IMG/VR virus record: IMGVR_UViG_3300046532_004322 | Location: 1 to 64,000 of that record | DNA length: 64,000 nucleotides | Reading direction: 5' to 3' (one strand) | DNA from: a virus | In this document: piece after piece, positions 1 through 44,900 of the stretch | Numbering within the stretch: the first letter of the stretch is position 1 | Layout of the letters: the number at the start of each line of letters is the position of its first letter | Notes under the pieces: generated by a model | What the model saw: only the letters and a program-made list of their open reading frames with translations | Database searches by the model: none | What the model was told of the DNA's origin: nothing | Translations under genes and position numbers: made by a program

Positions 1-348
1 ATACACTAATTTAGAAATATCAGCTTGTATCATTAACTTAGAGCACTCCAAGCAAGGAGATAGGGTGGTATACATCGTAGCCCCTTTACTGGATTGAGTG
101 GATTTAGCTAATTTAGTTATAGCATTACTCTCCGCATGAAGAACTTCTGGCTTTGTCACTAAGGAACCTTCAAGTTCAATTTCGCAATTATTGTCAAAAC
201 CTTTAGGGGTTCCATTATATCCATCAGAAATAATAGATCCATTTTTAACAATTAAACATCCAACCTTTTTTCTTTTAGCATTAGATAAAGAGGCCCATAT
301 TAAAGCCATCTTTAGATAAGCTAAATCAAGATCTTTCTGACTGGCCAT
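1..348 (-). CDS. Deoxycytidylate (dCMP) deaminase, 3' end outside window
   Basis: The 116 visible codons read as the N-terminal two thirds of a zinc-dependent dCMP deaminase, which makes dUMP for dTTP synthesis. The zinc site is clear: HAE at residues 71-73 supplies the His ligand and the proton-shuttle Glu, and SPCLEC at 97-102 supplies the two Cys ligands. A GxNGTPKGFDN-type loop lies at 43-54, as in phage dCMP deaminases. The ATG overlaps the stop of the RNR small subunit by one base (TAATG), so the two are translationally coupled and share the nrdB promoter. The C-terminus lies beyond the left edge. Confidence 0.93.
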   Translation of the reverse strand, partial: MASQKDLDLAYLKMALIWASLSNAKRKKVGCLIVKNGSIISDGYNGTPKGFDNNCEIELEGSLVTKPEVLHAESNAITKLAKSTQSSKGATMYTTLSPCLECSKLMIQADISKLVY

Positions 349-1361
349 TAGAAGTCATCTTCTAATGAACCTACTTGCTGATATTCCCTAACTCTCCTTT
401 CGAAGAAATTGCCCATAGCCTGAACATCTACAGCTTCGCCTAGCCAAGGAAAAGGGTTATGATCGCTAGGGAATCTAAAATCAAGACCGATAGACTCTAA
501 CCTTCTGTTTCCTATATAATGCATATAATCTATAAACATTTCTGCATTTAATCCCAGTATCCCCGTAGGAAGAACGTCATGAGAATATTTTATTTCTAGA
601 TCCACGGCCTTTTTGATATGTTCTACGAATTCTTGCTGTATTGATTTAGTCCAAATAGAAGGGTTTTGTTCAATTAATGTATTTATTATATAAACACCGA
701 AAGAAATATGAGAACTTTCATCCCTTAGGGTATATTTAATTTGATCAGATATACCCTGAAGCTTATTCTGCCTACCGAGAGAAAGCAGCATTGCGAACCC
801 GCTAAAGAAAAAAGTTCCCTCACAAACTATATAATAAGTTAATAAGTTCCTTAATATTTCTTGTTTCCCAGCTCTCGTAGAGGCATTAAATCCATCCCTG
901 TTTATATCAGTAGTTATTTCCATTAGGAAATCATCTTTGGCTTTAATACTAGGAACGTTTTGATAGGCGGCAAAAACTTCTTCTATATTAAGGTCGAGAC
1001 TATCGCATATATATACTATAGTTAAATTATGCAAACTCTCTTCGTAGGCTTGTCTTAGTATATATTGACGACATTCTGCATCTGAAATATGTTTAAAGGC
1101 AGAAAGAAGAAGATTATTTCCAACAAGAGATTCGCTTCCAGCGAAAAAACCCAAACACCTCCTTACGAGAAGCTTTTCAGCATCAGATATTTCATCCCCA
1201 TTCCACTGCTTAATGTCTTCTTGCATGGATATCTCAGTAGGCATCCAATTGTTTGCGCAGCTACTTAAGAAAAGATCCCAAGCAAATTTATGCTTATGAG
1301 GTAAAATTCTATTTACAACAGAAATTTCGTTGGTTAATAAGTCTCCAGATTTATCATTCAT
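348..1361 (-). CDS. nrdB: Ribonucleotide reductase class I small subunit, class Ic-like residues
   Basis: This is the radical-generating R2 subunit that works with NrdA to make deoxynucleotides; 337 aa is a normal length. All six metal ligands are recognisable: E77, E108, H111, E181, E215 and H218. Two details are unusual. The first ligand is Glu where class Ia proteins have Asp. The residue four after H111, where E. coli has radical Tyr122, is Ile115. Glu-first with no radical Tyr is the pattern known from the Mn/Fe class Ic proteins such as Chlamydia R2, where the position is Phe. A Tyr near the C-terminus (Y327) could serve the radical-transfer route. It is followed by dCMP deaminase and is about 23 kb from nrdA. 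The start lies just downstream of a consensus promoter. Confidence 0.95.
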   Translation of the reverse strand: MNDKSGDLLTNEISVVNRILPHKHKFAWDLFLSSCANNWMPTEISMQEDIKQWNGDEISDAEKLLVRRCLGFFAGSESLVGNNLLLSAFKHISDAECRQYILRQAYEESLHNLTIVYICDSLDLNIEEVFAAYQNVPSIKAKDDFLMEITTDINRDGFNASTRAGKQEILRNLLTYYIVCEGTFFFSGFAMLLSLGRQNKLQGISDQIKYTLRDESSHISFGVYIINTLIEQNPSIWTKSIQQEFVEHIKKAVDLEIKYSHDVLPTGILGLNAEMFIDYMHYIGNRRLESIGLDFRFPSDHNPFPWLGEAVDVQAMGNFFERRVREYQQVGSLEDDF

Positions 1362-1408: not shown

Positions 1409-3484
1409 TTAGATCACTAGAATTTTACCAACAGAAAAAGGCGAACTGTTCAGAAACGGATTCATGTAGAAATAAACTCCTTTTTCAGAAGGAGTAAAAC
1501 TCATAGTTTCACCTTCGGAGACTAATTGAGGGGAAACTCCAGATGTAAGATTGGATGTTTCTCCTAAAGTAGGAACGTCTTTAATGCACAGTTTTTGCCC
1601 GAATCCAGTAAGATTTTTCATATTTAAAGTGTCACCGACTTTGATAACTATATGGGGAGTAGTTTTAGAAAATGTTCCAGAAGAGTAAATAGGCTCAAGC
1701 CTATGCTCTCCTTCTAGTTTGAAATGAGCATTCGTACCACCCGTAAAAGAACTGTCTATATCGTATGTTTTATTAAGAGCCGAATTTAATATAATCTCAT
1801 CTCTCCAGTTTGATTTATATGTTATAACGGAAACGTTCTCCCAGCTTTGCGTTCCAAGGATACTTCTTTTGTCATTAAAATCTCCATAGCCAAACCATTC
1901 GTTGGTCTTTTCGCCTGCAAAATCACAAGGAGACTTTACCCATTCATTTTCAGACGAATTGTATTCGTATACATGAAGTTCGCCCTTGAGTTGGTTAAAA
2001 AAGTCCGCATTAAAGGCTAAGACAGTAGGTGTATTATCTTGGTTATTTGAAAAATGAAGGCGGGCATTTCCATCTTCTATGTCATTGCCTATTTGAGAGT
2101 AAGCGCCAGTTTCGTCTTCTATGTTAAGGGAACTTTTGAAAGTAAAAGCAAAAGGACTGAAATTTTGATTCAAGGCCATTATTTTTAAATCATTTCCGTC
2201 GAGTTCATAACCAGGATTTACTTGACTAATAGTTTTTTCTAAAGTCCATGTTCCTTCAAAATCATCAATATTTGTAGGAGTTGGGGTTGATGCTGGGTCG
2301 TGAGGAAATTCATCATATTCCCAAATTTCTATAAAATGATTAGTGCCACCTCCATTATGCTTGAGTATACTAATTTTAGTCCCATCGATACTAAATCTTT
2401 CTGTAATGGCATGTATAGCATCCATCGACGAAGTATCTCCAAGCTCTTTCCATGAATTAGAACTTTCGTCATACTTCCTAATGTAGGTTGTTTGTTCAGA
2501 TTCTAAGCGGCCAACTATAATGTTACCGAGAGGATGTATAGACATGAAGTCATCACCTTCTGTGGTAGACACTATATCTTCTCCCATTTGAGTCAGCGTG
2601 GACCCGTCTATTTTATAAATTCGAACAAAAGCACTAACACTTTGGTTGGTTGATGTAATCCGACTATAATAAAAAACAGCAACCGAATCGTTTAAGGAAC
2701 AAAGCTCGACATTATACAGGATATGATCGGCAGGAATGTTTTGATGCCAATCTATATTGGAGGAATCCGCACTTTCTTCATATAATTTAGAAGAAGAGTT
2801 AAGCTCCATTAAGGAATACTTTAATTTCTTGGGCGAGGCCGTCTCTTCTCTCCTCCATATTAATTTGCCAAGAGAATAGTTAAATGAAACCCTCGGAGAA
2901 AGGTCATCTTCTCCGCTTGCAAACGGAACTTCATGCTCAAGCTCCCCAAGGCTTTCCGAGAACCATTGGCATCCAGCCGTTTTAGTTGGGCTTGAGGTAG
3001 GAGTTGGGCTAAGGGTTGCCGTAGGAGTTACTGTAGGAGTTATGGTAATCGTATTAGTTATAGTGGGGGAGACTGTCATTGTGGGAGTCTCTATTCCTTT
3101 ACATTCCTCGCAGCTAGCATAATCTCCAGTATAATCTTCTCTAACCTCTTCTATCGGAGCATTATCTCCAACCTTCCTGAAGCAAACTCCGCCGATTTTA
3201 ACAAAATCTGGGGCACCATGAGGTAGTGATACGTGCGCACTATTACCACCGAACGTAGGGCCACCGCCCGTTCCGTAGGTATAGGTATAGTCAGCATTAC
3301 TTAAATAATAACTAGGGAAATTAGATACAAAGATTTCTTGACCCTCTTCAAGGTCTTCAAGTAAAGAACTGTTAGCTTCTTTTATTTCATCCGAAGTAGT
3401 CTCATACATAAAGGCTATGTCTTTAATAGTTTCACCTTCTGAAACTGTATGAATTATTCTAAGATCTGTTTCTTCTTCACTCAT
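1409..3484 (-). CDS. Virion-type protein: LysM, Cys module, Thr/Pro linker, cupredoxin-like end
   Basis: 691 aa. Residues 10-53 form a LysM domain (SEGETIKDIA then EGQEIFV), a fold that binds peptidoglycan or acts as a baseplate adaptor. Residues 86-130 hold a small module (APDF, GGVCF, DYTGDYASCEEC) that recurs in the next gene. Residues 131-170 are a mucin-like Thr/Pro/Ser linker. The middle 400 residues are beta-rich and not recognised. The last 90 residues look like a cupredoxin fold (VIKVGDTLNMKN, GVYFYMNPF, VGKILVI), but the usual His and Cys-His-Met copper ligands are absent. Probably a tail or surface structural protein. It ends next to the nrdB promoter and lies five bases from the gene upstream. 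Confidence 0.7.
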   Translation of the reverse strand: MSEEETDLRIIHTVSEGETIKDIAFMYETTSDEIKEANSSLLEDLEEGQEIFVSNFPSYYLSNADYTYTYGTGGGPTFGGNSAHVSLPHGAPDFVKIGGVCFRKVGDNAPIEEVREDYTGDYASCEECKGIETPTMTVSPTITNTITITPTVTPTATLSPTPTSSPTKTAGCQWFSESLGELEHEVPFASGEDDLSPRVSFNYSLGKLIWRREETASPKKLKYSLMELNSSSKLYEESADSSNIDWHQNIPADHILYNVELCSLNDSVAVFYYSRITSTNQSVSAFVRIYKIDGSTLTQMGEDIVSTTEGDDFMSIHPLGNIIVGRLESEQTTYIRKYDESSNSWKELGDTSSMDAIHAITERFSIDGTKISILKHNGGGTNHFIEIWEYDEFPHDPASTPTPTNIDDFEGTWTLEKTISQVNPGYELDGNDLKIMALNQNFSPFAFTFKSSLNIEDETGAYSQIGNDIEDGNARLHFSNNQDNTPTVLAFNADFFNQLKGELHVYEYNSSENEWVKSPCDFAGEKTNEWFGYGDFNDKRSILGTQSWENVSVITYKSNWRDEIILNSALNKTYDIDSSFTGGTNAHFKLEGEHRLEPIYSSGTFSKTTPHIVIKVGDTLNMKNLTGFGQKLCIKDVPTLGETSNLTSGVSPQLVSEGETMSFTPSEKGVYFYMNPFLNSSPFSVGKILVI

Positions 3485-3488
3485 CTAA

Positions 3489-4463
3489 TTAAACTTTAAA
3501 TTCATCAAAGAACTGCGTGTAGGCTTCGTTCATGATTTCCCAATTGTTTCCATTTACTAAAGTGTTAGAGAAGTACCAAGCGACAATACTCCAATGAGTG
3601 CCGTTACTGCTACTTTCTGATCCCATTTGGCCTATAGATAAAACGGTGGATAACTGGTTACCTGGCGGAGAAAATAAGCTGGAAGTTAAAACCTCGGAAC
3701 CTATTTCTGGTATGGAAAATTCATGAGGGTTTATTGGAAACTGCAAAGGAATGCTCCCCGAGTATTTAAGAAGACCTCCATCAGGACAACCAATTGCTCC
3801 ACCCACTCCGCCAAAAGAACTATTTCTAACCCATTGCTCATCAACAGATATACCCTGTTTGAAGGCGAACATAACAGCTGTAGAAAGATATTGAAAACCT
3901 CCTATATGACAAGCAGGTACAGAAGGTTGAAAAGCAGCGGCATTATCATCAAGGAATTTTTGATCATCATAGCTCCATAGGCAAGAAATACTATTAAAGA
4001 AATGGCTAATTCTTTCATCAGAAAAAGATATACTTGAAGAAGCTGGATTAGAACAAGGAGAGCTTATGTTAAAAGGAGTTAAGGTCGGCGTTGAATTAGG
4101 AGGAAGTTCTGGAGTTAAACTTGGAGTGGGCGTAATGGCGGGAGGGGTAAGAGTAGGAGTCATCGCGAGAGTAAGAGTGGGAGTCATCGCGAGAGTAAGA
4201 GTGGGAGTTTCTGCAGGAGTGGCAGTAAGAGTAACTGTGGGAGTAAGAGTCTTTGTGGGGGTCTCGTGAATAAGTAAACAGGAATCACAATCCGCAAAGT
4301 CTCCAGAATAATCAGTCCTTATGTCATTAGGTAAAACTTTTTCGTTGGTTCTCTGGTAGCATTCTCCTTCAACGAGAACAAAATCTGGAGCTTCTGCAGG
4401 GAGAGCGACTTCAGAAGGAGATGCGCCTAAAGACTTATAAATAAAATTTTCTTCACCAGACAT
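3489..4463 (-). CDS. Virion-type protein with shared Cys module and Thr/Pro linker
   Basis: 324 aa. Residues 21-63 repeat the module of the downstream neighbour (LPAEAPDF, GECYQR, DYSGDFADCDSC), so the two genes share a duplicated N-terminal unit. Residues 67-131 are a long Thr/Pro/Leu linker containing a duplicated TLTLAMTP octapeptide encoded by a perfect 24-bp tandem repeat. Residues 132-324 form a C-terminal domain I do not recognise, with several Cys and aromatic residues. Role inferred from context: accessory structural or adhesion protein, with the linker exposing a distal domain. The Thr/Pro tract would suit O-glycosylation. Confidence 0.65.
   Translation of the reverse strand: MSGEENFIYKSLGASPSEVALPAEAPDFVLVEGECYQRTNEKVLPNDIRTDYSGDFADCDSCLLIHETPTKTLTPTVTLTATPAETPTLTLAMTPTLTLAMTPTLTPPAITPTPSLTPELPPNSTPTLTPFNISSPCSNPASSSISFSDERISHFFNSISCLWSYDDQKFLDDNAAAFQPSVPACHIGGFQYLSTAVMFAFKQGISVDEQWVRNSSFGGVGGAIGCPDGGLLKYSGSIPLQFPINPHEFSIPEIGSEVLTSSLFSPPGNQLSTVLSIGQMGSESSSNGTHWSIVAWYFSNTLVNGNNWEIMNEAYTQFFDEFKV
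4156..4203. repeat. 24-bp tandem repeat, two perfect copies
   Basis: Unit at 4156-4179 repeated at 4180-4203. It encodes the octapeptide TLTLAMTP twice within the Thr/Pro linker of the 3489-4463 protein. Confidence 0.9.
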
Positions 4464-4609: not shown

Positions 4610-4942
4610 TTACTTTCTTTTAATTTTACCCTTTAGCCAAATAGAAGCATTGTTAATAAAAGTTAATATATAATGTAGAGAACAACAACTAAAAATTAAT
4701 AACAAAACAACTAGGAAACCCATAAGCGGAGTTCTGTAATCGACAGAGGGATCGACAAAAGAGCGTTTTGTTTCTTTTGTTTTTCGGTGGTTTTTAAATT
4801 CTTCTTTAGAAATAGTTCCGTCTTTATCAGAATCAATTTCAGAAAAAGATATCACCTTTGGTTGAATATTGTTTTTTTTAGAGACTTCCGTTTTAACGGA
4901 ACAAGCGCATAAGAAAATACAAAATAAAAATGCAATTCTCAC
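4610..4942 (-). CDS. Putative one-piece spanin (lipoprotein plus C-terminal TM) with an EF-hand
   Basis: 110 aa with a GTG start that overlaps the holin stop (GTGA), so it is coupled to it. Residues 1-14 form a short signal sequence ending in LCAC, an acceptable lipobox with C14 as the lipidated Cys. Residues 37-48 are a complete EF-hand loop (DSDKDGTISKEE) with Asp at positions 1, 3 and 5, Thr at 7, Ser at 9 and Glu at 12. Residues 73-96 form a transmembrane helix followed by a basic tail. An outer-membrane lipid anchor plus an inner-membrane C-terminal helix is the layout of unimolecular spanins such as phage T1 gp11, which fuse the membranes at lysis. The EF-hand is unexpected. The lipobox is weak at position -2, so an ordinary membrane protein remains possible. 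Confidence 0.55.
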   Translation of the reverse strand: MRIAFLFCIFLCACSVKTEVSKKNNIQPKVISFSEIDSDKDGTISKEEFKNHRKTKETKRSFVDPSVDYRTPLMGFLVVLLLIFSCCSLHYILTFINNASIWLKGKIKRK

Positions 4943-5395: not shown

Positions 5396-6250
5396 TTATG
5401 ATTTAAAATCTTTTTTACCAGAAGACACCGCAGCTGAATATTGCTCCCAGTCTTTTTCTGGTCTAACTTTAAGGTTTGTGTCCCAAGCGGCTTTTAAAAT
5501 TATAGGGTCAAGATCAAGATCGGACATTATGTTAATTAAGGAATTTATATCTTTAGGGAAGCAGGTTCCCCCGAAGCCCTTCTTTCCATCATTACCAGGG
5601 ACTTCGTAATGAGTTCTACCTATCCTGCCATCTGAGATAACACCTTTTATTATTTCATTATAATCTAAATCCAGTTTATCGATGAGAAGACTCATTTCAT
5701 TAAAAAACGCTATCTTGACAGAGAAAAAACAATTAGCAATATACTTAACGCATTCAGAAGAATTACTGTTCATTACAAAATTAGGAACTCCAGGAAATCT
5801 GTTTTCAAAAAGATTGACTACGCTTGAAGTATCAGAAGGATCTTTCGTGTACCCAAAAACATTTCGCGAGCAAGTTATAAAATCAAGCTTGGCATTTCTA
5901 GCTGTTAAAAATTCAGGAGAATGAATTATATTTAAATTAGGGTACTTCTCACCAAGAATAGATGTAGTACCTACTGGAACCGTAGATTTAATTATAAATG
6001 TACAATTAGGGTTATATGAAGAGGCTTCTTCAAATACAGATTCTATAATGGATGTATCACACTTGCCTCCATCTTTAATTGACATGGGAGTAGGGACGCA
6101 AACAAAAACGAACTCTTGAAGAAGAACTTCCTCAAGGGGGTTTAACCTTCTTTTTTCATCTTTATCAAAAATTTTAACTTCACAAAAAGACGAGAAGCCA
6201 GAAGCAATAGCCGATCCGACGAATCCATTACCTACTATTCCAACGCTCAT
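5396..6250 (-). CDS. UDP-glucose/GDP-mannose dehydrogenase family protein, short form
   Basis: This family oxidises a nucleotide sugar at C6 in two steps with NAD, for example UDP-glucose to UDP-glucuronate. The N-terminal Rossmann motif is GNGFVGSA (7-14). The central helix carries KYIANCFFSVKIAFFNE (169-185). The catalytic Cys is C230 in GFGGTCFPKD. The protein stops at 284 aa, whereas typical enzymes run to about 400-450 with a C-terminal substrate-binding domain, so this is a short form or a truncation. It is the last gene of the long glycan operon, and its start overlaps the upstream epimerase stop by 4 bases. Confidence 0.85.
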   Translation of the reverse strand: MSVGIVGNGFVGSAIASGFSSFCEVKIFDKDEKRRLNPLEEVLLQEFVFVCVPTPMSIKDGGKCDTSIIESVFEEASSYNPNCTFIIKSTVPVGTTSILGEKYPNLNIIHSPEFLTARNAKLDFITCSRNVFGYTKDPSDTSSVVNLFENRFPGVPNFVMNSNSSECVKYIANCFFSVKIAFFNEMSLLIDKLDLDYNEIIKGVISDGRIGRTHYEVPGNDGKKGFGGTCFPKDINSLINIMSDLDLDPIILKAAWDTNLKVRPEKDWEQYSAAVSSGKKDFKS

Positions 6251-7269
6251 TTCCAGTAAGAATATATATCTTTTTCTATTTCGTAATCCATAAACCCGAC
6301 TTCTCTATCAGGTTGTTCTTTGGCCCAGAAAAACATTTCAGTAATAAGATCAAGGAGATTGGTTTTATCATTGAATTTCAAAAGATCTTTGGCTTTATCA
6401 TGGTTGCAATAAGCATCCTTCACTTCTTCTCTTGCTTCTCCATGTTCTATCTTTACGTCAAGCATAAAACTTTTTGCAATTTTCTTAACTGAAGTAGCCG
6501 TTTCATTCAGGGAGAAATGCTTATCGGCGCCAACATTAAAGATTTCACCATTATAATCATCAAGTAATAAATGCAATGGATCCATGTAGTATTTTATATC
6601 GGAGAAAGCTCTAGTCTGCTCGCCGTCGCCGTAAATAATTAAAGGCTCATTTTTTAATGATTTTCTTATAAAAATTCCTATTACATTTCGATATTTATCC
6701 CATATGTTTTGATATATACCTAATACATTATGAGGTCTAACTATATTATATCTTAAACCAAATTGTTTTGAAGCGTTTTCTATATCTTGCTCTACAGTAT
6801 ATTTTGCTATACCGTATGGATCGCAAGGTGTAGGTCTAAGGTCTTCTGTAAAAGGGGGAGCGCTACATCCATAGACAGCCATAGATGAGGTAAATATTAA
6901 TTTGCTATCATGATTGACGCAATTATTTATAACAGAAGCAGAAGCAATTACGTTATTCTGATAATTAAATACCCTAACAAATGGAGAAAGCCCCTCGGAT
7001 GCATATGCCGCAAAATGATATGTCGCTTCAGGCTTATGTTTTTCATAAATATCAGATAACTCTTTGAAGTCTTTGTCTAGAGATATTTTATAGAATTTAA
7101 AATTTTTACCTTCGGGAAGATAGTCAGAATAACTCCCGAACATATTATCTATTCCAATAACATTGTAGCCCTTTTTAAGTAAGAACCTGCTAAAATGATT
7201 TCCTAAAAGTCCAGCGCAACCCGTGACTAGTATGGTTTTGCCGTGATTGAATGCCGATATAGTTTTCAT
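6247..7269 (-). CDS. NAD-dependent nucleotide-sugar epimerase/dehydratase
   Basis: 340-aa extended short-chain dehydrogenase. The NAD-binding motif is GCAGLLG (17-23), the active site has SSMAVYG and the Tyr-Lys pair in PYGIAK, and the substrate end has GDGEQTRAFSDI, typical of UDP-sugar 4-epimerases. The exact substrate cannot be read from the sequence; UDP-glucose/galactose is likely because UDP-galactopyranose mutase is the next gene upstream and needs UDP-galactose. Both ends overlap neighbours by 4 bases. Confidence 0.88.
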   Translation of the reverse strand: MKTISAFNHGKTILVTGCAGLLGNHFSRFLLKKGYNVIGIDNMFGSYSDYLPEGKNFKFYKISLDKDFKELSDIYEKHKPEATYHFAAYASEGLSPFVRVFNYQNNVIASASVINNCVNHDSKLIFTSSMAVYGCSAPPFTEDLRPTPCDPYGIAKYTVEQDIENASKQFGLRYNIVRPHNVLGIYQNIWDKYRNVIGIFIRKSLKNEPLIIYGDGEQTRAFSDIKYYMDPLHLLLDDYNGEIFNVGADKHFSLNETATSVKKIAKSFMLDVKIEHGEAREEVKDAYCNHDKAKDLLKFNDKTNLLDLITEMFFWAKEQPDREVGFMDYEIEKDIYSYWK

Positions 7270-8276
7270 TTGAAACCTTTTGCTTTTAATTTAACCATTA
7301 CTTGCTTGATTGCCATCCACATGTCAAGATATTTATAGGTGGCAAGCCTTCCCAGAAATATAGTGTTAGGGTCGGATTCTGCCATCAGTTTATATTTCTT
7401 ATATATTCCAGGGCCATCTCCGAAAGTTTTAGGGTAAATTGGGTCATTTTTATTGGAGTCGTATTCTTCTGGGAAATCTCTAGTATGAACAGTATATTCT
7501 ACATCTTCATTCAAATATACACTACTATCCATCGTCCTGTTAAAAGGTTTTGTGTTGCATTCGTTTATAACTGCTCCAGAATCCCAAGAGTAAGCGGGGT
7601 CTTTTTTAACCCTTGTGTGTTCAAAGACTAGGGATCTGTAAGGAAGGTGGCCGAAAAGAAGGTTAAAATATTCAGATACCCTACCCGTCCATATTAACTT
7701 ATCGCATTTTAAATTTTTCCAGCTATTTCTATCAACCCCAAGATTAACCTTTATACCTTCCAACATCGATTTGAACATTTCCGAATATCCGTTTTCAGGT
7801 ATACCCTGATATTTATCTGTAAAATATCTATCATCATAGTCATCTCTTTTATTGGGAACCCTGCCACTTATACTTTTGGGTAAATCTTCCCAAGGGACAC
7901 CCCAATGCCTTTCGGAGTAATCTTTAAATAACAAATCTTTGATTTCTTCTGGCGAAAGGTCTCTACCTAATTGATCAGCGGTTTTCTTATTGAAAGGTAT
8001 TGAAAGCAGCCCTTCTTTGGTGTTCGCCCTAACCCTGTGCTCGTAGTTATTAAATTTAGTATACCTATTTAAAAAATTCCAAACTTCTTCGTCGTTGGTA
8101 TGGAAAATATGGGAGCCATATTTATGAACAGTACATCCATCGGAATTTTTTTCGTCATAGCAATTGCCACCCACATGTTCTCTAGACTCGAAGATCTCGA
8201 CTTCATGACCGAGATCTCTTAATAAAATAGCGGAGGTGACTCCTGATAGACCGCAACCTATTATGTTAACTTTCAA
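7266..8276 (-). CDS. glf: UDP-galactopyranose mutase
   Basis: A flavoenzyme that converts UDP-galactopyranose to UDP-galactofuranose, the donor for Galf in bacterial surface glycans. The FAD motif GCGLSG lies at residues 7-12, followed by HVGGNCYD. The conserved KYGSHIFHT segment is near 52, and the C-terminal GRLATYKYLDM signature is intact. At 336 aa it is a little shorter than the usual 370-390. It overlaps the upstream glycosyltransferase by 11 bases, so its product is presumably used by transferases of this operon. Confidence 0.95.
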   Translation of the reverse strand: MKVNIIGCGLSGVTSAILLRDLGHEVEIFESREHVGGNCYDEKNSDGCTVHKYGSHIFHTNDEEVWNFLNRYTKFNNYEHRVRANTKEGLLSIPFNKKTADQLGRDLSPEEIKDLLFKDYSERHWGVPWEDLPKSISGRVPNKRDDYDDRYFTDKYQGIPENGYSEMFKSMLEGIKVNLGVDRNSWKNLKCDKLIWTGRVSEYFNLLFGHLPYRSLVFEHTRVKKDPAYSWDSGAVINECNTKPFNRTMDSSVYLNEDVEYTVHTRDFPEEYDSNKNDPIYPKTFGDGPGIYKKYKLMAESDPNTIFLGRLATYKYLDMWMAIKQVMVKLKAKGFK

Positions 8277-20587: not shown

Positions 20588-21529
20588 TTATTTTCTAGAG
20601 TCAGCCTCAAGCTTGTTTTTTAAATACCATTCAATAGTTAACTTCAGGCCAACTTCAAAAGAGACTGGCTTGAAATCTGGGAATTTTCTCCTCATTCTTT
20701 CTACATCGAGAACTTTCCTGGGGACGCCATTGGGCTTTGACGAGTCCCAAGTTAAGGCTCCTTCGTATTTTATATATTTTGAAACAAGTTCAGCAAGCTC
20801 AAGTATGGTGGTTCCTTGACCAGTGCCAATATTTATTGGTTCTAAATCATGCTCTAGCTCAACAGATCTAACTATGGCTTCAGCCGCATCTTTCACATAT
20901 AAAAATTCCCTAATTGGGCTTCCGTCCCCCCAGTTGATTGTAAATGGGCTACCCTTTTCCTTCTCATCGGAAAATCTTTTTATTAAGGCAGCAACGACAT
21001 GAGATCGATATTCGGTAAAAACGTCGTTTTCTCCATATAGATTAGTTAAACAAAGATGGTTTCCTTCGATGCCATATTGTTTATGGTAAGACTGTTGGGC
21101 AATTAACTGTATCTTTTTTGAGGAACCATATCCAATAACGGATTCATGCATGGGGCCGCTCCAGAAGTCTTCTTCCTTCATGAAGCCTGCGACATCTCCA
21201 GGGTATGCACAGGCAGAACCAACTGAAACTATTTTTTTTACGGAATTATGAGCCGCAGCTTCAAAAAGATTGGTTGTCATTAATGTATTTCTATTAAAAA
21301 GATTAGCTGGCTCTTCCGTATTAATCTTTAATCCTCCATAGTAAGCCGCAGAATGAATTATAACCGAAGGCCTGTATTTCTCTAGATATTTGTAGGTAGA
21401 GAAATAATCGTATAGATTACATTCGGAGCTAGACGGGGATATTATTGTCTCATATTTTTCCGAACACTTGGAAACTATTTGTCGCCCAAGAAACCCAGAT
21501 CCCCCCGTTATCATTATTTTATCATACAT
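20588..21529 (-). CDS. fcl: GDP-L-fucose synthase
   Basis: 313 aa. Converts GDP-4-keto-6-deoxymannose to GDP-L-fucose by epimerisation and NADPH reduction. Landmarks are GGSGFLGRQI (9-18) for cofactor binding, the SVGSACAYPG catalytic Ser/Cys segment, YGSSKK with the catalytic Tyr and Lys, and GDGSPIREFLYVKDAAEA near 205-222. It is the last gene of the nrdA-led operon and works with gmd two genes upstream to make the pathway complete from GDP-mannose. Confidence 0.95.
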   Translation of the reverse strand: MYDKIMITGGSGFLGRQIVSKCSEKYETIISPSSSECNLYDYFSTYKYLEKYRPSVIIHSAAYYGGLKINTEEPANLFNRNTLMTTNLFEAAAHNSVKKIVSVGSACAYPGDVAGFMKEEDFWSGPMHESVIGYGSSKKIQLIAQQSYHKQYGIEGNHLCLTNLYGENDVFTEYRSHVVAALIKRFSDEKEKGSPFTINWGDGSPIREFLYVKDAAEAIVRSVELEHDLEPINIGTGQGTTILELAELVSKYIKYEGALTWDSSKPNGVPRKVLDVERMRRKFPDFKPVSFEVGLKLTIEWYLKNKLEADSRK

Positions 21530-22454
21530 TTTTATATTTACTCCTATTATCTAAGGCTGGAGAGGCATCAATTAATTCTTTAATACCCTGCTCGACGGTT
21601 TTTGAAATTGAAAATCCTGCATCATTGATTTTTTTATAAGAAACCTCATAGTTTCTCTTGTCCTCGTCTTCGCCTATCTCTGCAAAGTGAAGATAGTAAT
21701 CAACTTTATCTTTTATCATTAAAGCTATCTCTTCTTTATTGTAATTATTGAAATCCCCGCCAACGTTAAATGTGTTATTTTTCATTGAGTCGTAATTTTC
21801 AATAGCATATACAATACTCTTTGCCATATCGTCCACATGAATAAAAGTCCTCTTGAATGTTTTTTCAAACATGACGAGAAGCTTATTGTTTATAGCTTGA
21901 TAAACAAAGTCATTAATCAATAAGTCAAGCCTCATTCTGGGGGATAGACCAAATGCAGTTGCAAATCGATAAGCAACCGCACCATTTTCATTTAAAAATA
22001 TTTCTTCAGCTTCTGTTTTAGTTTTTCCATATAAGCTGATTGGGTTAAGCGGAGTCTCCTCCGTACAAATTTCGTTTTCTATAATTCCATAATTAGATCC
22101 AGTCGAGGCATAAACAGTACCTTGATCTTTCGATAGCAATGAAGATATAAGTCTAGACGAATCCACGTTCACGGATTTAGCAAGATCAGGATTTTTCCTA
22201 CAAGCAGGGAATCCTACTATTGCTGCTAAATGAATTACGAATTCAAAATTATGAACGAGGGGTTCCATAAAAGCCTTGTCCCTGGCGTCGCCTTTTATGA
22301 ATTTAAATTTAGAATTTTTAAAATGATGTATTAATGTGTGACCATTATCATACATTAAGTTATCTACGACACAAACCTTATACCCTTTATCGAGAAGTTG
22401 TGGAACTAAAACGGAGCCTACATATCCAGCGCCCCCTGTAACCAATATCTTCAT
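21522..22454 (-). CDS. NAD-dependent nucleotide-sugar epimerase/dehydratase
   Basis: 310-aa extended SDR. GGAGYVGSVLVPQLL (7-21) binds NAD, ASTGSNYG carries the active-site Ser, and SLYGKTK carries Tyr and Lys. The end of the fold (KRTFIHVDDMAKSI, NVGGDFNNY) is typical of epimerases. It lies between gmd and fcl with 4- and 8-base overlaps, so its substrate may be another GDP- or UDP-sugar used by the same glycan. Specific reaction not readable. Confidence 0.85.
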   Translation of the reverse strand: MKILVTGGAGYVGSVLVPQLLDKGYKVCVVDNLMYDNGHTLIHHFKNSKFKFIKGDARDKAFMEPLVHNFEFVIHLAAIVGFPACRKNPDLAKSVNVDSSRLISSLLSKDQGTVYASTGSNYGIIENEICTEETPLNPISLYGKTKTEAEEIFLNENGAVAYRFATAFGLSPRMRLDLLINDFVYQAINNKLLVMFEKTFKRTFIHVDDMAKSIVYAIENYDSMKNNTFNVGGDFNNYNKEEIALMIKDKVDYYLHFAEIGEDEDKRNYEVSYKKINDAGFSISKTVEQGIKELIDASPALDNRSKYKNV

Positions 22455-23476
22455 AATAAATTGTAATCGTGATTATACATTTTTTCTACCAAGCCCATAA
22501 AAGAACATTTTGGATTCCAGCCTAATTCACTAATTGCTAATGCAGGGTTTCCTTGTAATAAATTTACTTCTGCTGGTCTATAATATTCAGGATTGACTTT
22601 TACTAAAACATTATCTCTGTCGTCAGTAAATTTCTCATCAACATCCTTTCCATGAGAAGAAACTGTTATTCCTGCAACCTGAAAACATGTAGTTATAAAA
22701 TCCCTAACAGTATTGACTTCTCCACTTGATAAGACATACTCTTGGGGATGCTCTTGGTTAAGCATAAGCCAAATGCCTTCGATGAAATCTTCAGCATCAC
22801 TCCAGTCTCTCTCTGCATTCATATTTCCAACTTCAAGTGGGATTATTTCAGTGCCATTCTCTATTGATTTTTTAATTTTCGCAATTGTTGATGTTATTTT
22901 TCTAGTAACAAATTCATAACCTCTCCTTGTACCTTCGTGATTAAACAGGAAGCCTTGAATTGCATAAATTCCATAAGACTCCCTGTATACCTTAACTAGG
23001 TGCCTTGCTGATGCTTTTGATGCACCGTAAGGGCTTCTTGGTCTAAGAGGATGCTTTTCATCTTGAGGTGAATAAATAACATCACCAAATTCTTCAGAAG
23101 ACCCTGCATTATAAAATCTACATTTAGGATGATGCGTTCTAATGGATTCAAGTATATCTAAAACTGAAGTAGAATTAACTTCGAAAGTTTGCTTTGGAAA
23201 GTCCCAACTAGAACCAACAAAACTTTGGGCGGCGAAATTAATAAAATAATCTGGTTTGTATTTTAAGATGGATTGTTCTATGCTATGAGAATCAGATAGG
23301 TCAATATTTACAAGTTTAAAACGATTGCTATTAATATGATTAATGTTAACATGATTTGTAACACTAAGTCTTCTTACCCCTCCATAAATTTTATAATCAG
23401 TATTATTGAGAAGATAGTCTACCATGAAACTTCCATCTTGGCCTGAAATTCCAGTCGTTATTATAGTTTTATTCAT
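22451..23476 (-). CDS. gmd: GDP-mannose 4,6-dehydratase
   Basis: 341 aa. First step of GDP-L-fucose synthesis. GISGQDGSFMVDYLL (9-23) is the characteristic NADP motif, GSSEEFGD holds the catalytic Ser and Glu, SPYGASKASA the Tyr and Lys, and FNHEGTRRGYEFVTRKI is a hallmark of the family. It overlaps the epimerase by 4 bases and is 32 bases from the glycosyltransferase upstream. Confidence 0.96.
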   Translation of the reverse strand: MNKTIITTGISGQDGSFMVDYLLNNTDYKIYGGVRRLSVTNHVNINHINSNRFKLVNIDLSDSHSIEQSILKYKPDYFINFAAQSFVGSSWDFPKQTFEVNSTSVLDILESIRTHHPKCRFYNAGSSEEFGDVIYSPQDEKHPLRPRSPYGASKASARHLVKVYRESYGIYAIQGFLFNHEGTRRGYEFVTRKITSTIAKIKKSIENGTEIIPLEVGNMNAERDWSDAEDFIEGIWLMLNQEHPQEYVLSSGEVNTVRDFITTCFQVAGITVSSHGKDVDEKFTDDRDNVLVKVNPEYYRPAEVNLLQGNPALAISELGWNPKCSFMGLVEKMYNHDYNLL

Positions 23477-23508
23477 ACATAAGCATGTTAAAGATTAAAT
23501 TGGAAAAA

Positions 23509-24285
23509 TCAACAAATAGAAGCTTTAAAATAATTATCTTTTATTTTTTCTAGTTTCCATTTTTTTTTAACATCAGATTTAAGCCAAGGATCTCTTTTGC
23601 AAAACAGCCTATTTGATTCTATTTTATGAGATAAAGCTTTGTTAATGTTTTTATATTCAACGTTTCCGAATTCTTGTTGGTTTACTATTCTTTCTAGGTC
23701 TTCGTTTGGTATATGATAAATATCTTTAGGCTTTATATATTTCCGCTTAACTCCTGAATTACTCATGCGATTATAAAGATCGTCATCATCAAATCCGTAG
23801 GATACTATTCTTTCGTTGTATCCATTTATGTTATCAAAGGCTTGTCGAAAAAAATATACCTGACCGTTAAGGTGGTTTTCATTTTCGTTTCTTGCGAGCT
23901 TCCAAGACCCTCTAAAGAAACTATTTGAACTAAGCCGATAAAGATCTAAGAAATTGGAAGGAAGGATTATGTCGGAATCAAGCTTTAGAACCTTGTCGAA
24001 AGTGGTTTGTGAAACGGCAAGATTGTAAGCCCATGACAATACCCACCTGAACATTTTGTCAACTCTAATGAGCTTAATTCTAGAATCATTCAAAAGCTCA
24101 ATATTTTTAATTAAGGGCTTTTGAGAAGACCAATCGACAATTATTATTTCATCTATGTTTTCGACTTTTAACCAATATCTTAAGGAGGATAGTAAATTTC
24201 TGTTTCTATCCATGCAACAGCATGCAATTGACGTCCCTTCCTTACTGGCAGCTTTCACAAGAATCGCCGCTTTTAGAAGCTTCAA
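23509..24285 (-). CDS. Glycosyltransferase, GT-A (family 2/galactosyltransferase-like)
   Basis: Up to 258 aa. SIACCCMDRNRNLL begins the nucleotide-binding strand, LKLDSDIILP holds the DxD, and GFDDDDLYNRM is the catalytic Asp segment seen in galactosyltransferase-type GT2/GT27 proteins. The ATG at 24285 gives a 44-base overlap with the nrdA end; a GTG at 24258 is an alternative. A start at the internal Met after CCC would cut the first strand, so it is less likely. Cotranscribed between nrdA and gmd. Confidence 0.72.
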   Translation of the reverse strand: MKLLKAAILVKAASKEGTSIACCCMDRNRNLLSSLRYWLKVENIDEIIIVDWSSQKPLIKNIELLNDSRIKLIRVDKMFRWVLSWAYNLAVSQTTFDKVLKLDSDIILPSNFLDLYRLSSNSFFRGSWKLARNENENHLNGQVYFFRQAFDNINGYNERIVSYGFDDDDLYNRMSNSGVKRKYIKPKDIYHIPNEDLERIVNQQEFGNVEYKNINKALSHKIESNRLFCKRDPWLKSDVKKKWKLEKIKDNYFKASIC

Positions 24286-26680
24286 TACTGCAAGTTTTTA
24301 CTTCTTCGGTATCTGATTTTTCAATTTTAGTTGCAGCCCTATTTCTTAAATAGTAGGTGGTTTTCAACCCATGATCCCAGCAGCTCATGTAAATATCATT
24401 TAAATACTTTAAGGATGTTCCTTTGTTATAAAGATTAAAGCTAATAGATTGATCGATCCATTTCTGCCTAATGGAATTACATTCAATAAGTTTAAACATG
24501 TCTCTATCGAAAGCGGTTTTATATTTTTCTTTTAAGTCTTCGGGCAGATTTCCATTGAGAAGGGATAGATCTCCGTCCACGCTTTTTATCATGGCGGGCA
24601 TTTCAGGAGTCCAGAGATCCCTGTCTTTCATGTCTTTTATAAAGTGCTCATTAGTTATATAGAAATTGCCGCTCTTGTTTTCATAAACAAACAGAACAGA
24701 AAAGTTAGGCTCAATGCTTTGCTCTACTCCATTGATGTAGCCAATAGTAGCGGTAGGGGCAATAGCCATAACGTTCGAGTTTCTCATTCCAAATTCACCA
24801 ACATGAATTCTTACTTTTTCCCATTCTTTAAGGGTTTGTCCATGGCCAGTCAAAGGCTTCCCCGTGACAGAAGATTCGGGTGCTTTCCGCTTACCTTTAT
24901 AAACCATTAGGTTGTTATAAGAGTCTATAGGGAATACCCCTTCACTCCATAATGAACCATTATAAGTCTCGTAAGAACCTCTTTCCTGAGCCAACAAAGA
25001 ACTGGCGTAAATTGCGTGGCAAGAATAAAATTCAAAAATCTTATCGTTAAAAGCTAATGCTTTATCGCTATCGATCTGAATGTTTAGTTTATGAAGGATA
25101 TCGTGAAAGGCCATTACCCCTAATCCTATAGGCCTATTTCTTAAGTTCGACTTTTCAGCCTCCTTTGTTGGGTAGAAATTTAAATCTATAACATTATCCA
25201 GCATTCTAATTGCGGTATAAATGGTATTTTTAAATTTTTCATAATCTATATCGTCTCCAGATTCATTTAAATGATTTAAGAGGTTTATGGATCCAAGATT
25301 ACAAACAGCCGTCTCACCTATTTCCGTTTTTTCTCCTTGTGAGTATTTTGAAGCTTTTGTATGTAGGGTAATTTCAGTGCAAAGATTAGAGCTGTGAACT
25401 ATTCCCTCATGTTGGTTTGTGTATCGAATATTACAAGGGTCTTTAAATGTATTCCAGGGGTGAGACGTTTCAAAAAGAACCTTGAGCATTTTTTTCCAAA
25501 GTTCTTTGGCGGGCATTTTTTTCCAATTGGGTACATGACCGTTTTCGGCTAAATCAATTAAGGCATTGTATCTTTGGTCAAACTCCTCGCCGAAGCAATC
25601 ATGAAGGTCTGTCTCTGCTGGATTAAAGAAATACCAATCTTTTTCATCCTTAACTCTCCTCATGAATTCATCGGGAATCCATGAGGCGGTGTTCATGTCG
25701 TGACATCGTAATCTGTCGTCTCCAGTATTCCTTCTTAAATTAAGAAAGCTTTCGTAATCTAAGTGCCAAGGCTCTAGATAAGCGCACCCAGCGCCAGGTC
25801 TTTTACCTCCTTGGTTGACGGCAATTAATAAATCATTATATATTTTAAGCCAAGGAACAAGTCCACTAGATATACCATTAGTGCCTTTTATGTATGAACC
25901 CGTAGACCTAAAGGGGGTAACGTCTAGACCTAACCCTCCTGCGAATTTTGATTTTCTAGCTTCTTGCCAAGCTCCGTCAAAGATCCCGTCGATACTGTCA
26001 TCGAAAGTATTTAAATAGCAAGAGCTTAATTGAGAATGGGTAGTTCCGCTATTGAATAGAGTTGGAGTAGATGGAGTATAATGAAGCCGACTCATTATAT
26101 CGTAAAATTCAATAGCCTTTTCCTCTTTGTCCTTTTCGTTTTTAGCCAAACCCATTGCAACCCTCATCCAAAAGCATTGAGGAGCCTCCATTACGTTGCC
26201 TTCGTGTTTTATAAAGTATCTGTCAGATAATATTTGTATTCCGAGATACTTGAATAACTTATCATTTCTTATTCTTAAACTCTCGGAAAGTTTAGTTAAG
26301 TCATAATCAAGAAGATCTTTATTTAAAAAATCCAACTTAACCATCTTCTTTATGTTTTGGATGAAGCTCTTTCTATACTGGAGATCAAAGGCATCAGAAT
26401 CCACCCCTTCGTTGAATACCTCTTTGTATAAACAATTCAGCAACATTCTTGCAGCAGCATAAGAATAATTCGGTTCCTTAGATATCTTTTCTCTTGAAGA
26501 TAGTATTAGAGCTTGATCTATTTCGGATGTCGTAATTTTATTGAACAATTGTAGCTGGGCATCCAAGACCACTTCACTGGCAGAAACATTTTCGATCCCC
26601 TCGCATGCCCTTTCTGCACAAAAATTAATCTTATCAACCTTAAACTCCTCTAATCTTCCGTTTCTCTTCTTAACTTGCAT
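24242..26680 (-). CDS. nrdA: Ribonucleotide reductase class I large subunit
   Basis: 812 aa, full length. Residues 1-90 are an ATP-cone allosteric domain. Catalytic residues line up with the E. coli enzyme: C221 (SSCYLN), N432, C434 and E436 (SNLCTEI), C460 (AVCNLGS), the Tyr pair Y776-Y777 (TTYYLRN) for radical transfer, and a C-terminal CxxC (C808, C811) for thioredoxin-type reduction. It partners the nrdB at the far left end, not adjacent. It heads an operon that continues into a glycosyltransferase, gmd, an epimerase and fcl, so deoxynucleotide and fucose-donor synthesis are cotranscribed. A promoter lies upstream. Confidence 0.97.
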   Translation of the reverse strand: MQVKKRNGRLEEFKVDKINFCAERACEGIENVSASEVVLDAQLQLFNKITTSEIDQALILSSREKISKEPNYSYAAARMLLNCLYKEVFNEGVDSDAFDLQYRKSFIQNIKKMVKLDFLNKDLLDYDLTKLSESLRIRNDKLFKYLGIQILSDRYFIKHEGNVMEAPQCFWMRVAMGLAKNEKDKEEKAIEFYDIMSRLHYTPSTPTLFNSGTTHSQLSSCYLNTFDDSIDGIFDGAWQEARKSKFAGGLGLDVTPFRSTGSYIKGTNGISSGLVPWLKIYNDLLIAVNQGGKRPGAGCAYLEPWHLDYESFLNLRRNTGDDRLRCHDMNTASWIPDEFMRRVKDEKDWYFFNPAETDLHDCFGEEFDQRYNALIDLAENGHVPNWKKMPAKELWKKMLKVLFETSHPWNTFKDPCNIRYTNQHEGIVHSSNLCTEITLHTKASKYSQGEKTEIGETAVCNLGSINLLNHLNESGDDIDYEKFKNTIYTAIRMLDNVIDLNFYPTKEAEKSNLRNRPIGLGVMAFHDILHKLNIQIDSDKALAFNDKIFEFYSCHAIYASSLLAQERGSYETYNGSLWSEGVFPIDSYNNLMVYKGKRKAPESSVTGKPLTGHGQTLKEWEKVRIHVGEFGMRNSNVMAIAPTATIGYINGVEQSIEPNFSVLFVYENKSGNFYITNEHFIKDMKDRDLWTPEMPAMIKSVDGDLSLLNGNLPEDLKEKYKTAFDRDMFKLIECNSIRQKWIDQSISFNLYNKGTSLKYLNDIYMSCWDHGLKTTYYLRNRAATKIEKSDTEEVKTCSIEASKSGDSCESCQ

Positions 26681-41902: not shown

Positions 41903-44900
41903 TTAATTTATTTGATCAGGCCTTATATTAAGCCTTCCTTCAAGCGCCCTAGCCATAACTTCACTTATAATTGGATCGAGGAGCATATTTTTTAATTGAT
42001 CGAACATTACTGGACCTAAAGCCTGAGAGAACATTTCGGTATTGAAATCCAATGTAACATTTCCAGTTATTCCATGGTTAAAAATTACAGACTCCAATTC
42101 GTTCTTCATTGCCTTAGGTAATTCATTTATTGATTCAGAGACCTTATTGACCCCTTCTGTTGCCGCTTGATCTATTTGATTTACCTTTCCATCTTTTCCT
42201 ACTTCATGAATAGTATGGTCCGCCCCAGGAGTGGACGCAATATACGGGCTCGGCGGCATGACATTTTCTTGAGTATCGTGAATAAACGGACCGCCCTGAA
42301 CTGGACTCCGAAGAGACCCGCCCCACGATGTTGCTCTTCGAGAGCCTGAATTTGAAACAGGGGAGAACGTCGGCATCGTGGGGGCGGTGACGGAGGGTTG
42401 ATTGATTGCCTGGGTTCCTTTGTCGAACCAAGCCTTCCAGCTCTCCTTCATTTTCTCGATCTCAAGTACAAACCCCTTCTCATCTTTTGCCCACTGGGGT
42501 ATATTTAATTGCCCGTAACCACTGACGTCAACATCCGCTTGTTTTAAGAAATCGCGCTGTTCGGGCTTTAACATCTGCGTAACTCCATCGTTATCCCCCG
42601 CTTTTCTAACCATTTTGTCTTGTAATATCGAATCGATTTGAACATTCTCGATATTGTCATAACTTTTTAATAAAGCTTCGATATTGTCTTTCAAAATTCC
42701 AAAGTTGTCTTGTTGGGAAGCTTGTCGTTGCCCGTAACCAGGTGCAAGGTGGGGCGAGTCGGTGCCAAGAACGGGGGGCATATCCCCTATGCCCATATTT
42801 TCGAATTTAGTTGCCTCTATGGGCCAAAGACCAGCCGAAGGGGCATTACCTTTATTCTTTAGTTTCGTAAAATGAGGCAGACTTGCCACCCGATTTTGTT
42901 GCTCTCTGATTATTTTTGTAGCCAATTTTATCGTATCATTCTTTGGTGTCAATGTCGAAAGCCAACGCGGGTCCTCTCCCTTGTCTGCAAGGTTCTGCGT
43001 CCGCCAGTTCGGCTTTGATTTTAGGAGTTCTAGTTTTCTTGCTAAATTTGAAACTAAATCATTGGTGAGTATGTCACCGTTAGCGTCCTTCGCCTCTTCA
43101 CTCAATGCAGCCAGAAAATGCAGGTTTTTTGTTTGCGCAGGTAGTTTCTCTAGATCCGTCCCTGCTTTATTAAGCGGGTCGTCACTCCCTGCAAACTGAC
43201 TTATTGGACCTGCTTTAGGATCGCCCAAGTGCCATTTTGTCACTTGCTTGCGATTACGCTTCCAATAGGGGTCCCTTACCTCCTGAAACCCCGTTTGCCC
43301 GCTTTTCCCTCTTACACCTGAAACCTTAACTGGGGCAAAAACTGTCGGTGTCTCGCGTTTTTTCTTAGCCTCAGCCGCACTAGCAGCTCTATCGCCTGCA
43401 GAGTCGGTCTTCTCGCCCAAATCTTGTTTTACCGAATCTCCTAACATGGAACTTATTGAATTCGCTATTCCAGTAGCTATTCCACTTTGAGAAGTCGTGC
43501 TTATATTTATCCCGCTATTACTAGCTAATTTGAAAAGACTTTCAGTATTATCGGCAATACTAAGAGTGGATGCTAGCATTTTTCCATTATCAGACAAAGA
43601 ATCAGAAAGTTCGCCTCCATATCCAATATTATTAAACTGACTCTTCTGCATCTGATCTACCGAGTCTATATTGGCAAACGCAACTTTTTTTCTTTTTTCG
43701 AGAAAGTCGATAAGCGGATCTCCATCAGGTCCGATGTCCTTATCCATCTTTTCTATATTTCTATTAATCTTAGCTTTTCTCTGATCCAGTCCAGTCCTCC
43801 CAGTCAATCCCGATAAATTTATTCCTAACGATTCCTCAAGAAAAGCTTGAGATTGCGAATTAATTGCTTCGTTCTCTTTTTCCGAAACGGTCCTACCTAA
43901 TCCTTTAACAAATTTAGATCTTTCTCCCTTGCGATTCAATCCCCCAGTTCTTATCGCATCGTTTAACTTCGTCGTATCATTAGTGCCTAAAATAGAACTT
44001 CCCATTTTGTTGATAAATTTGGCATCCAATTCCAGCATTTTATTTCTATTTTCTGATTTTAATTGATTTAATTGGGCGGAAAATACTGCACCGTTTCTCA
44101 GTTCTATATTTCTCATGTCAGTCTGTATCCTGTTGGAATATTCATTACTACTATTAAGAGTTTCAAGAAATCCCTTTATTTCTACTAGTGTAACGTTACC
44201 ATCTGCATTTTGCTTCATGAAATCAGTGAATTTATTTGTAAATTCTTCGCGCTCAGGACGCTCTTTCTTTTCGTTTTCTTTTTTCTCTCTTTCTAAAAAT
44301 GTCCCTTCATCCTTCTCTGCACTCAATCCTTTATCCTTAAGTATTTGATTCATGTCAATTAATGAATTTGGATCGGCGCCCTTAAGTAATCTTTCCATCA
44401 TTGAGCTTCTGAGTTCTTGATTATTTGAATCTCTAGCTATAATATTTTGAAGAGTATTTGATCTTGATACCTTTTCTCTTTCAGTTATAGCACCAACAGA
44501 GGATAATATATTATTTTTTCCTGAAAAATCCCGTTCTATGGTATCCCTATTTATCGACCTTACTCGTTCAACGGTTTCCCTATTTTTATTAAAATCTTCA
44601 ATAGCAAAATTTAACAACCTGACTTCTTTAATTAAAGATTTTAACTCATCTTCAATATTCTTTACTTTTGTCGCGTTTTTAGAGTTTGAATCAGCGTTGC
44701 TATCCAAGCTTTCTATTAATTTTTCCTGAGTTTGTATTTGTTCCTTCATCATTAACAAATTCTCTTTGGAAAGATTGTTTTCTGAAGGATCTATTATCCC
44801 CTCAACTATTTTATCAGCGGCAGCACTCTGCCCTCCATCTCTCAAAGCCTTTATGAAACTACTATTATTAAGTTTGTCTTTAGCATTCTTCTCCTCAAGA

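What the first reader, a model, noticed from the sequence alone, without database searches (positions are those of the whole stretch)
348..1361. Phage RNR small subunit lacks the radical tyrosine and has a Glu first ligand (class Ic-like)
Seen: ligands E77, E108, H111, E181, E215, H218 intact; Ile115 at the position of E. coli Tyr122; Glu instead of Asp at the first ligand. Known: Chlamydia-type class Ic enzymes replace the Tyr with Phe and use Mn(IV)/Fe(III), with Glu as first ligand. Inference: this phage enzyme makes its oxidant without a tyrosyl radical, an advantage under peroxide, superoxide or low iron. Ile rather than Phe is unusual.
Basis: partly seen in the sequence, partly recalled or inferred. 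Interest (0 to 1): 0.68.

Follow-up and report, generated by a model that had tools for sequence, protein, structure and literature searches.

The report
Tyrosine-free class Ic-type phage ribonucleotide reductase
A marine phage carries a DNA-building-block enzyme of the Chlamydia type, which most likely stores its oxidising power on a manganese/iron pair instead of a tyrosine; its use of isoleucine or valine in place of tyrosine is shared by a large ocean phage group already noted in a 2026 preprint but never tested in the laboratory.

Summary
Window 348-1361(-) encodes a 337-aa ribonucleotide reductase small subunit (NrdB) with six intact metal ligands, Glu as first ligand, and Ile115 where E. 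coli has radical Tyr122. It is not an oddity: about 143 distinct sequences, nearly all IMG/VR contigs, form one clade with Val (most) or Ile there, never Tyr or Phe, under strong purifying selection. Its nearest solved relative is the Mn/Fe class Ic subunit of Chlamydia trachomatis (52% identity; the top 13 structure matches). Glu-first-ligand tracks loss of Tyr: E/V, E/I or E/F against D/Y, with one class Id-like exception. Metal ligands, second-sphere Glu/Asp and the electron-relay residues match Chlamydia, and a cognate NrdA lies at 24242-26680(-). Best reading: a working class Ic-type enzyme with a metal-centred oxidant. The cofactor is inferred, not shown. Novelty is limited: Leu, Ile and Val were reported in R2c proteins in 2010, and a February 2026 preprint names this marine viral group 'subclass Ic-like' with Ile or Val. 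What I add is a clade-fixed second sphere, notably Thr211 in the old radical pocket, where class Ia and Ic mostly have Ile and class Id has Thr; this leaves a dimanganese variant open.

The parts
348..1361 (-). nrdB, class I RNR small (beta) subunit, class Ic-type, 337 aa
   Evidence: ORF; PF00268 253 bits; NCBIfam PRK07209 442 bits over cut-off; best PDB match C. trachomatis R2c E 2e-113; Foldseek top 13 all C. trachomatis NrdB
1017..1019 (-). Codon 115, ATA = Ile, position of E. coli radical Tyr122 / C. trachomatis Phe127
1131..1133 (-). Codon 77, GAA = Glu, first metal ligand (Asp84 in E. coli, Glu89 in C. trachomatis)
1029..1040 (-). Metal ligands E108 and H111 (ExxH 1)
   Evidence: invariant columns
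819..821 (-). Metal ligand E181
708..719 (-). Metal ligands E215 and H218 (ExxH 2)
729..731 (-). Codon 211 = Thr, fifth ligand minus 4; Ile in all 16 F-type and 29 of 34 Y-type relatives, Thr191 in class Id
   Evidence: class Id numbering and Thr191-Tyr104 contact from PMC8463856
1245..1247 (-). Codon 39 = Trp (C. trachomatis W51, E. coli W48), electron relay
732..734 (-). Codon 210 = Tyr (C. trachomatis Y222), relay for cofactor activation in class Ic
   Evidence: role of Y222 from PMC4118035
381..383 (-). Codon 327 = Tyr (C. trachomatis Y338, E. coli Y356), C-terminal tail tyrosine for radical transfer to NrdA
24242..26680 (-). nrdA, class I RNR large (alpha) subunit, 812 aa, one N-terminal ATP cone; C221, C434, C460, Y776/Y777 and C-terminal C808/C811 present
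1..348 (-). dCMP-type deaminase (cut by the window end), overlapping the end of nrdB; same order in relative L025

Best explanation
The gene encodes the small subunit of a functional, phage-encoded class Ic-type ribonucleotide reductase. A Mn/Fe pair bound by E77, E108, H111, E181, E215 and H218 reacts with O2 (or peroxide), takes one relayed electron by way of Y210 and W39, and rests as a Mn(IV)/Fe(III) oxidant that replaces the tyrosyl radical. In each turnover the oxidising equivalent passes by W39 and the tail tyrosine Y327 to Y777 and Y776 of the phage NrdA and then to C434, whose thiyl radical reduces ribonucleotides for phage DNA synthesis. Residue 115 (Ile here, Val in most relatives) is a redox-inert filler of the vacated radical pocket. 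Shown here: sequence features, kinship, covariation, purifying selection, intact partner gene. Inferred from C. trachomatis biochemistry: metal identity, oxidation states, electron path.
For: Closest solved relatives by sequence are C. trachomatis R2c at 52% and Saccharopolyspora R2 6y2n at 47%, both Phe/Glu types; Y/D relatives of the same NrdBz-like group are at 39-47%. All eight first- and second-sphere residues tabulated by Harrison 2019 (PMC6370689) equal those of C. trachomatis: E77 E108 H111 E181 E215 H218, E107, D214. Over about 200 relatives, Glu first ligand goes with F, V or I and Asp with Y; the only E/Y row, L203, has the class Id marks Thr at ligand 5 minus 4 and Lys at ligand 1 plus 4. 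Relay residues W39, Y210, Y327 are invariant in the clade. No Tyr or Trp was gained in the clade that C. trachomatis lacks, so there is no candidate substitute radical residue. Tree: phage clade 100/100, inside an all-Glu/non-Tyr group with C. trachomatis, haloarchaea and candidate-phylum sequences at 88/85 (99/95 in a smaller set). Model pLDDT 83, best structure matches all C. trachomatis NrdB, TM 0.85-0.87. NrdA catalytic and relay residues intact; nrdA lies upstream of nrdB in most relatives with enough flank.
Against: No metal, EPR or activity data exist for this clade. Phylogenetic support for grouping with C. trachomatis is moderate, and the AU test does not reject a tree in which the phage clade sits with the D/Y rows (p 0.057). 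The clade has its own fixed second sphere (T211, C180, S109, N112, I208) unlike any class Ic relative sampled, so the cofactor could differ from Mn/Fe.
Confidence: 0.78

Rival explanations
1. A Tyr-less variant with another metal-centred oxidant, most plausibly dimanganese Mn2(III/IV) as in class Id, or one that accepts several metal pairs. Thr211 and the small residue 115 would reshape the site 1 pocket.
For: Thr at ligand 5 minus 4 is fixed in all 148 clade rows, absent from the 16 F-type and 34 Y-type rows, and is the position of class Id Thr191 (L203 as internal control). Class Id also has a Glu first ligand.
Against: The class Id lysine at ligand 1 plus 4 is Gly or Ala here; class Id keeps Tyr, which is essential for its activity, and its NrdA lacks an ATP cone, whereas this NrdA has one; overall similarity is far closer to C. 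trachomatis than to class Id structures.
Confidence: 0.13
2. A conventional tyrosyl-radical enzyme that uses another tyrosine near the cluster (Y117, Y176 or Y210).
For: Y117, Y176 and Y210 are present in nearly every clade member.
Against: All three are also present in C. trachomatis R2c, which holds no stable tyrosyl radical, and Y117 and Y210 are also present in most Tyr122-type relatives; none was gained with the loss of Tyr122. The Glu first ligand without Tyr is the mark of the metal-centred class Ic type.
Confidence: 0.04
3. Not a reductase subunit but an R2lox-like oxidase or an inactive remnant.
For: Val at ligand 1 plus 3 and Tyr at ligand 4 minus 5, roughly where R2lox forms its ether cross-link, occur together in 147 of 148 rows.
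Against: C. trachomatis R2c has the same Val and Tyr; the NrdA-docking tail tyrosine and W39 are invariant; score to the RNR model is 442 bits against 72 for the best R2lox model; purifying selection; paired nrdA.
Confidence: 0.05

Closest known systems
Viral 'subclass Ic-like' RNR clade of Harrison et al., bioRxiv 2026 (PMC12918982)
   Same: Marine viral contigs; alpha subunit closest to NrdAz; beta subunit lacks the radical Tyr and has Ile or Val there
   Different: No difference found; the window fits the description, although the preprint's sequences were not compared directly. The main text gives no beta second-sphere residues, structure or cofactor assignment
Chlamydia trachomatis class Ic NrdB (R2c; PDB 1syy, 4d8f, 4m1i)
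   Same: 52% identity, same six ligands including first-ligand Glu, same second-sphere Glu/Asp, same W51/Y222/Y338 relay positions, no radical Tyr
   Different: Phe127 is Ile/Val; Ile223 is Thr211; Met192 is Cys180; Ala121 is Ser109; Thr124 is Asn112
Class Id NrdB (Flavobacterium johnsoniae)
   Same: Glu first ligand, Thr at ligand 5 minus 4, metal-centred oxidant
   Different: Class Id keeps the Tyr and has Lys at ligand 1 plus 4; about 22% identity in the fold match; its NrdA lacks an ATP cone
Clade O / Cyano SP cyanophage RNR (P-SSP7, S-CBP4)
   Same: Phage RNR lacking the radical Tyr, Glu first ligand (PMC6370689, PMC9531940)
   Different: Second-sphere Asp instead of Glu; short beta subunit without the alpha-binding tail; alpha is a separate ancestral clade

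Membership tests
Class Ic (NrdBzc / R2c) | Redox-inert residue at the radical Tyr position (Phe; Leu, Val and Ile also reported) | tested here: met
   Ile115; V or I in all 148 clade rows; reports of other residues in PMC6370689 and PMC3824934
Class Ic (NrdBzc / R2c) | Glu as first metal ligand with the other five ligands conserved | tested here: met
   E77, E108, H111, E181, E215, H218
Class Ic (NrdBzc / R2c) | Second-sphere Glu and Asp as in C. trachomatis E119 and D226 | tested here: met
   E107 and D214, in all 148 rows
Class Ic (NrdBzc / R2c) | Phylogenetic placement with R2c proteins | tested here: inconclusive
   Groups with C. trachomatis and haloarchaeal R2c at 88/85, but the alternative with D/Y rows is not rejected, AU p 0.057; class Ic itself may not be one clade, AU p 0.087
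Class Ic (NrdBzc / R2c) | Mn(IV)/Fe(III) cofactor | not testable with these tools
   Needs metal analysis, EPR/Mossbauer and activity on purified protein
Class Id | Tyr retained with Glu first ligand, plus Lys at ligand 1 plus 4 | tested here: not met
   Ile/Val at 115, Gly/Ala at 81
Class Ia | Radical Tyr with Asp first ligand | tested here: not met
Class Ie | Loss of three carboxylate metal ligands with Tyr retained | tested here: not met
   All carboxylates kept, Tyr lost
R2lox | No C-terminal radical-transfer tyrosine; no partner NrdA | tested here: not met
   Y327 invariant; nrdA present
Harrison 2026 viral Ic-like clade | Marine virus, alpha nearest NrdAz, beta with Ile or Val at the Tyr site | tested here: inconclusive
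   Ile115 met; nearest NrdA models are PRK07207 and P. aeruginosa 5im3 (that these are NrdAz is from memory); the preprint's own sequences could not be compared, and the sampling site of the window is not told

The most novel reading that the evidence does not exclude
A large marine phage group has evolved a Tyr-less RNR whose pocket (Ile/Val115 plus Thr211, Cys180 beside a ligand) tunes the cluster to a cofactor or activation route not seen before, for example an all-manganese metal-centred oxidant in a Tyr-less protein, intermediate between class Ic and class Id.
Probability: 0.15. Interest if true: 0.75.

Novelty: new member of a known kind. Interest (0 to 1): 0.4.

Why it matters
Class Ic biochemistry rests largely on one chlamydial enzyme. 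This phage clade is large (355 contigs matched in one IMG/VR scan), naturally Phe-free at the radical site and has a changed second sphere, so it would show what the residue at that site and its pocket do for metal choice and for holding a metal-centred oxidant. It may also bear on how viruses cope with metal supply in the ocean; the preprint's iron trends do not yet settle that.

Tried and rejected
Substitute radical tyrosine: no Tyr or Trp was gained in the clade relative to C. trachomatis. R2lox-like Val-Tyr cross-link: the Val/Tyr pair exists, but C. trachomatis R2c has it too. Class Id membership: no Tyr, no Lys at ligand 1 plus 4. V versus I: no other column follows the split strongly (best 0.54), and V and I interchange several times on the tree, so they look interchangeable. 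Host: no phage isolate carries a relative at 60% or more (best about 42%); the listed terminase matches are below 26% identity; host unresolved. The one hit in a bacterial genome (L082, Woesebacteria MAG) is on an 11-kb contig with phage-type nrdA and nrdB and is probably viral sequence in the bin. Coordinates of the model were not available, so pocket geometry was not measured.

Full report
Observation. The 337-aa ORF at 348-1361 on the minus strand is a class I RNR small subunit: Pfam PF00268 at 253 bits and NCBIfam PRK07209 at 442 bits against a cut-off of 309. Direct reading gives E77, E108, H111, E181, E215, H218 and Ile115. The alignment to C. trachomatis R2c places Ile115 on Phe127, hence on E. 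coli Tyr122, and E77 on E89.

Is it real and functional? One scan of viral contigs gave 355 relatives; the best 80 are 81-85% identical. With one MAG contig and the window itself, residue 115 is Val in 70 and Ile in 12. A wider scan added a second tier at about 61-64% identity, also with Val or Ile. In all, 148 rows (five are second copies of a contig already counted) have Glu first and V (129) or I (19), never Y or F. Among ten members, synonymous sites are saturated while pN stays at 0.04-0.13 (the script stopped on an identical pair after 31 comparisons). This is a conserved property of a clade.

Surroundings. The record is an 81,328-base viral contig and the window is its first 64 kb. A class I NrdA lies at 24242-26680(-), with one ATP cone, the active-site cysteines C221, C434 and C460, the tyrosine pair Y776/Y777 and the C-terminal CxxC. 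In relatives nrdA usually sits upstream of nrdB, sometimes about 50 bases away; here they are about 23 kb apart. A dCMP-type deaminase gene starts at the end of nrdB and does so again in L025. A dNMP kinase, a single-strand binding protein, a terminase and a PhoH-like gene confirm a tailed-phage setting. No isolate carries a close relative and the host is unknown.

What class? Structure searches by sequence and by predicted fold both give C. trachomatis NrdB first. All eight first- and second-sphere residues tabulated by Harrison et al. 2019 match the chlamydial enzyme. Across sampled relatives the first ligand and the radical position change together: D with Y (34-35 rows), E with F (16-18), E with V or I (148). 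The single E/Y row, L203, shows the class Id hallmarks, Lys at ligand 1 plus 4 and Thr at ligand 5 minus 4 (class Id features). A tree built without columns 77 and 115 puts the phage clade (100/100) in a group with C. trachomatis, haloarchaeal and candidate-phylum E/F sequences (88/85); a second E/F group (Phyllobacterium, Saccharopolyspora) falls among Y/D sequences, so class Ic may have arisen more than once. AU tests leave room: one clade for all E rows p 0.087, phage with Y/D rows p 0.057.

What is distinctive? Compared with 16 F-type and 34 Y-type sequences, the phage clade has fixed T211 where the F-type has Ile throughout and the Y-type mostly Ile; this is a residue of the hydrophobic radical pocket (Ile269 in yeast Y2; Ile234 in E. 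coli by position). It also has fixed Cys180 beside ligand E181, near-fixed Ser109 beside E108, fixed Asn112 after H111 and fixed Ile208. Class Id enzymes carry Thr191 at the same place as T211, where it holds the unused Tyr away from the metals. The phage pocket therefore pairs a small aliphatic residue with a threonine, a combination not found in the class Ic relatives sampled. No new Tyr or Trp appears, which argues against a relocated tyrosyl radical.

Mechanism. Conserved W39, Y210 and Y327 match C. trachomatis W51, Y222 and Y338. In that enzyme Y222 and W51 mediate the one-electron reduction of Mn(IV)/Fe(IV) to the active Mn(IV)/Fe(III) state (PMC4118035). By homology the phage enzyme should work the same way and pass the oxidising equivalent to NrdA C434. 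The metal identity is inferred; no data exist for this clade.

Prior knowledge. Substitution by Leu, Ile and Val in R2c proteins is credited to Hogbom 2010 in PMC3824934, and Harrison et al. 2019 used Phe, Leu or Val as the class Ic criterion. The decisive prior report is the February 2026 preprint PMC12918982: 269 GOV 2.0 alpha sequences form a clade nearest NrdAz, whose beta subunits lack the tyrosine and have Ile or Val, named 'subclass Ic-like'. Its models show anti-correlation with iron, but its discussion says no single metal explains the distribution and that the cofactor is unknown.

Verdict. Observation confirmed; interpretation partly supported; a new member of a known but uncharacterised kind. 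The remaining interest lies in the untested cofactor and the clade-specific second sphere.

Noticed in passing
window 729-731 (codon 211) and 822-824 (codon 180): Clade-fixed Thr211 (Ile in class Ic and mostly Ile in class Ia relatives, Thr in class Id) and Cys180 next to a metal ligand in all 148 phage rows.
   Followed up: partly
L203 (from genome G009): A distant NrdB-like protein with Glu first ligand, Tyr kept, Lys at ligand 1 plus 4 and Thr at ligand 5 minus 4, that is a class Id pattern, found in the search of Woesebacteria-related genomes.
   Followed up: partly
L194, L195: Deep-branching Glu/Phe (class Ic-pattern) NrdB proteins with only 30-38% identity to the window and to C. trachomatis R2c, suggesting the Tyr loss arose more than once.
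   Followed up: partly
L082 (NZCP01000046.1): A Woesebacteria MAG contig carries phage-type nrdA and nrdB 72-85% identical to the window; probably viral sequence binned with the MAG.
   Followed up: no
window 5396-8276 and 20588-24285: Phage-borne sugar-nucleotide genes: UDP-glucose dehydrogenase-like, GalE-like epimerase, UDP-galactopyranose mutase-like, further nucleotide-sugar epimerases and a galactosyltransferase-like protein.
   Followed up: no
window 41903-54436: A 4177-codon ORF of unknown function.
   Followed up: no
window 1409-4463: Two adjacent proteins with Thr/Pro repeat linkers (TPTVTPT), one starting with a LysM-like stretch; a small EF-hand protein at 4610-4942.
   Followed up: no
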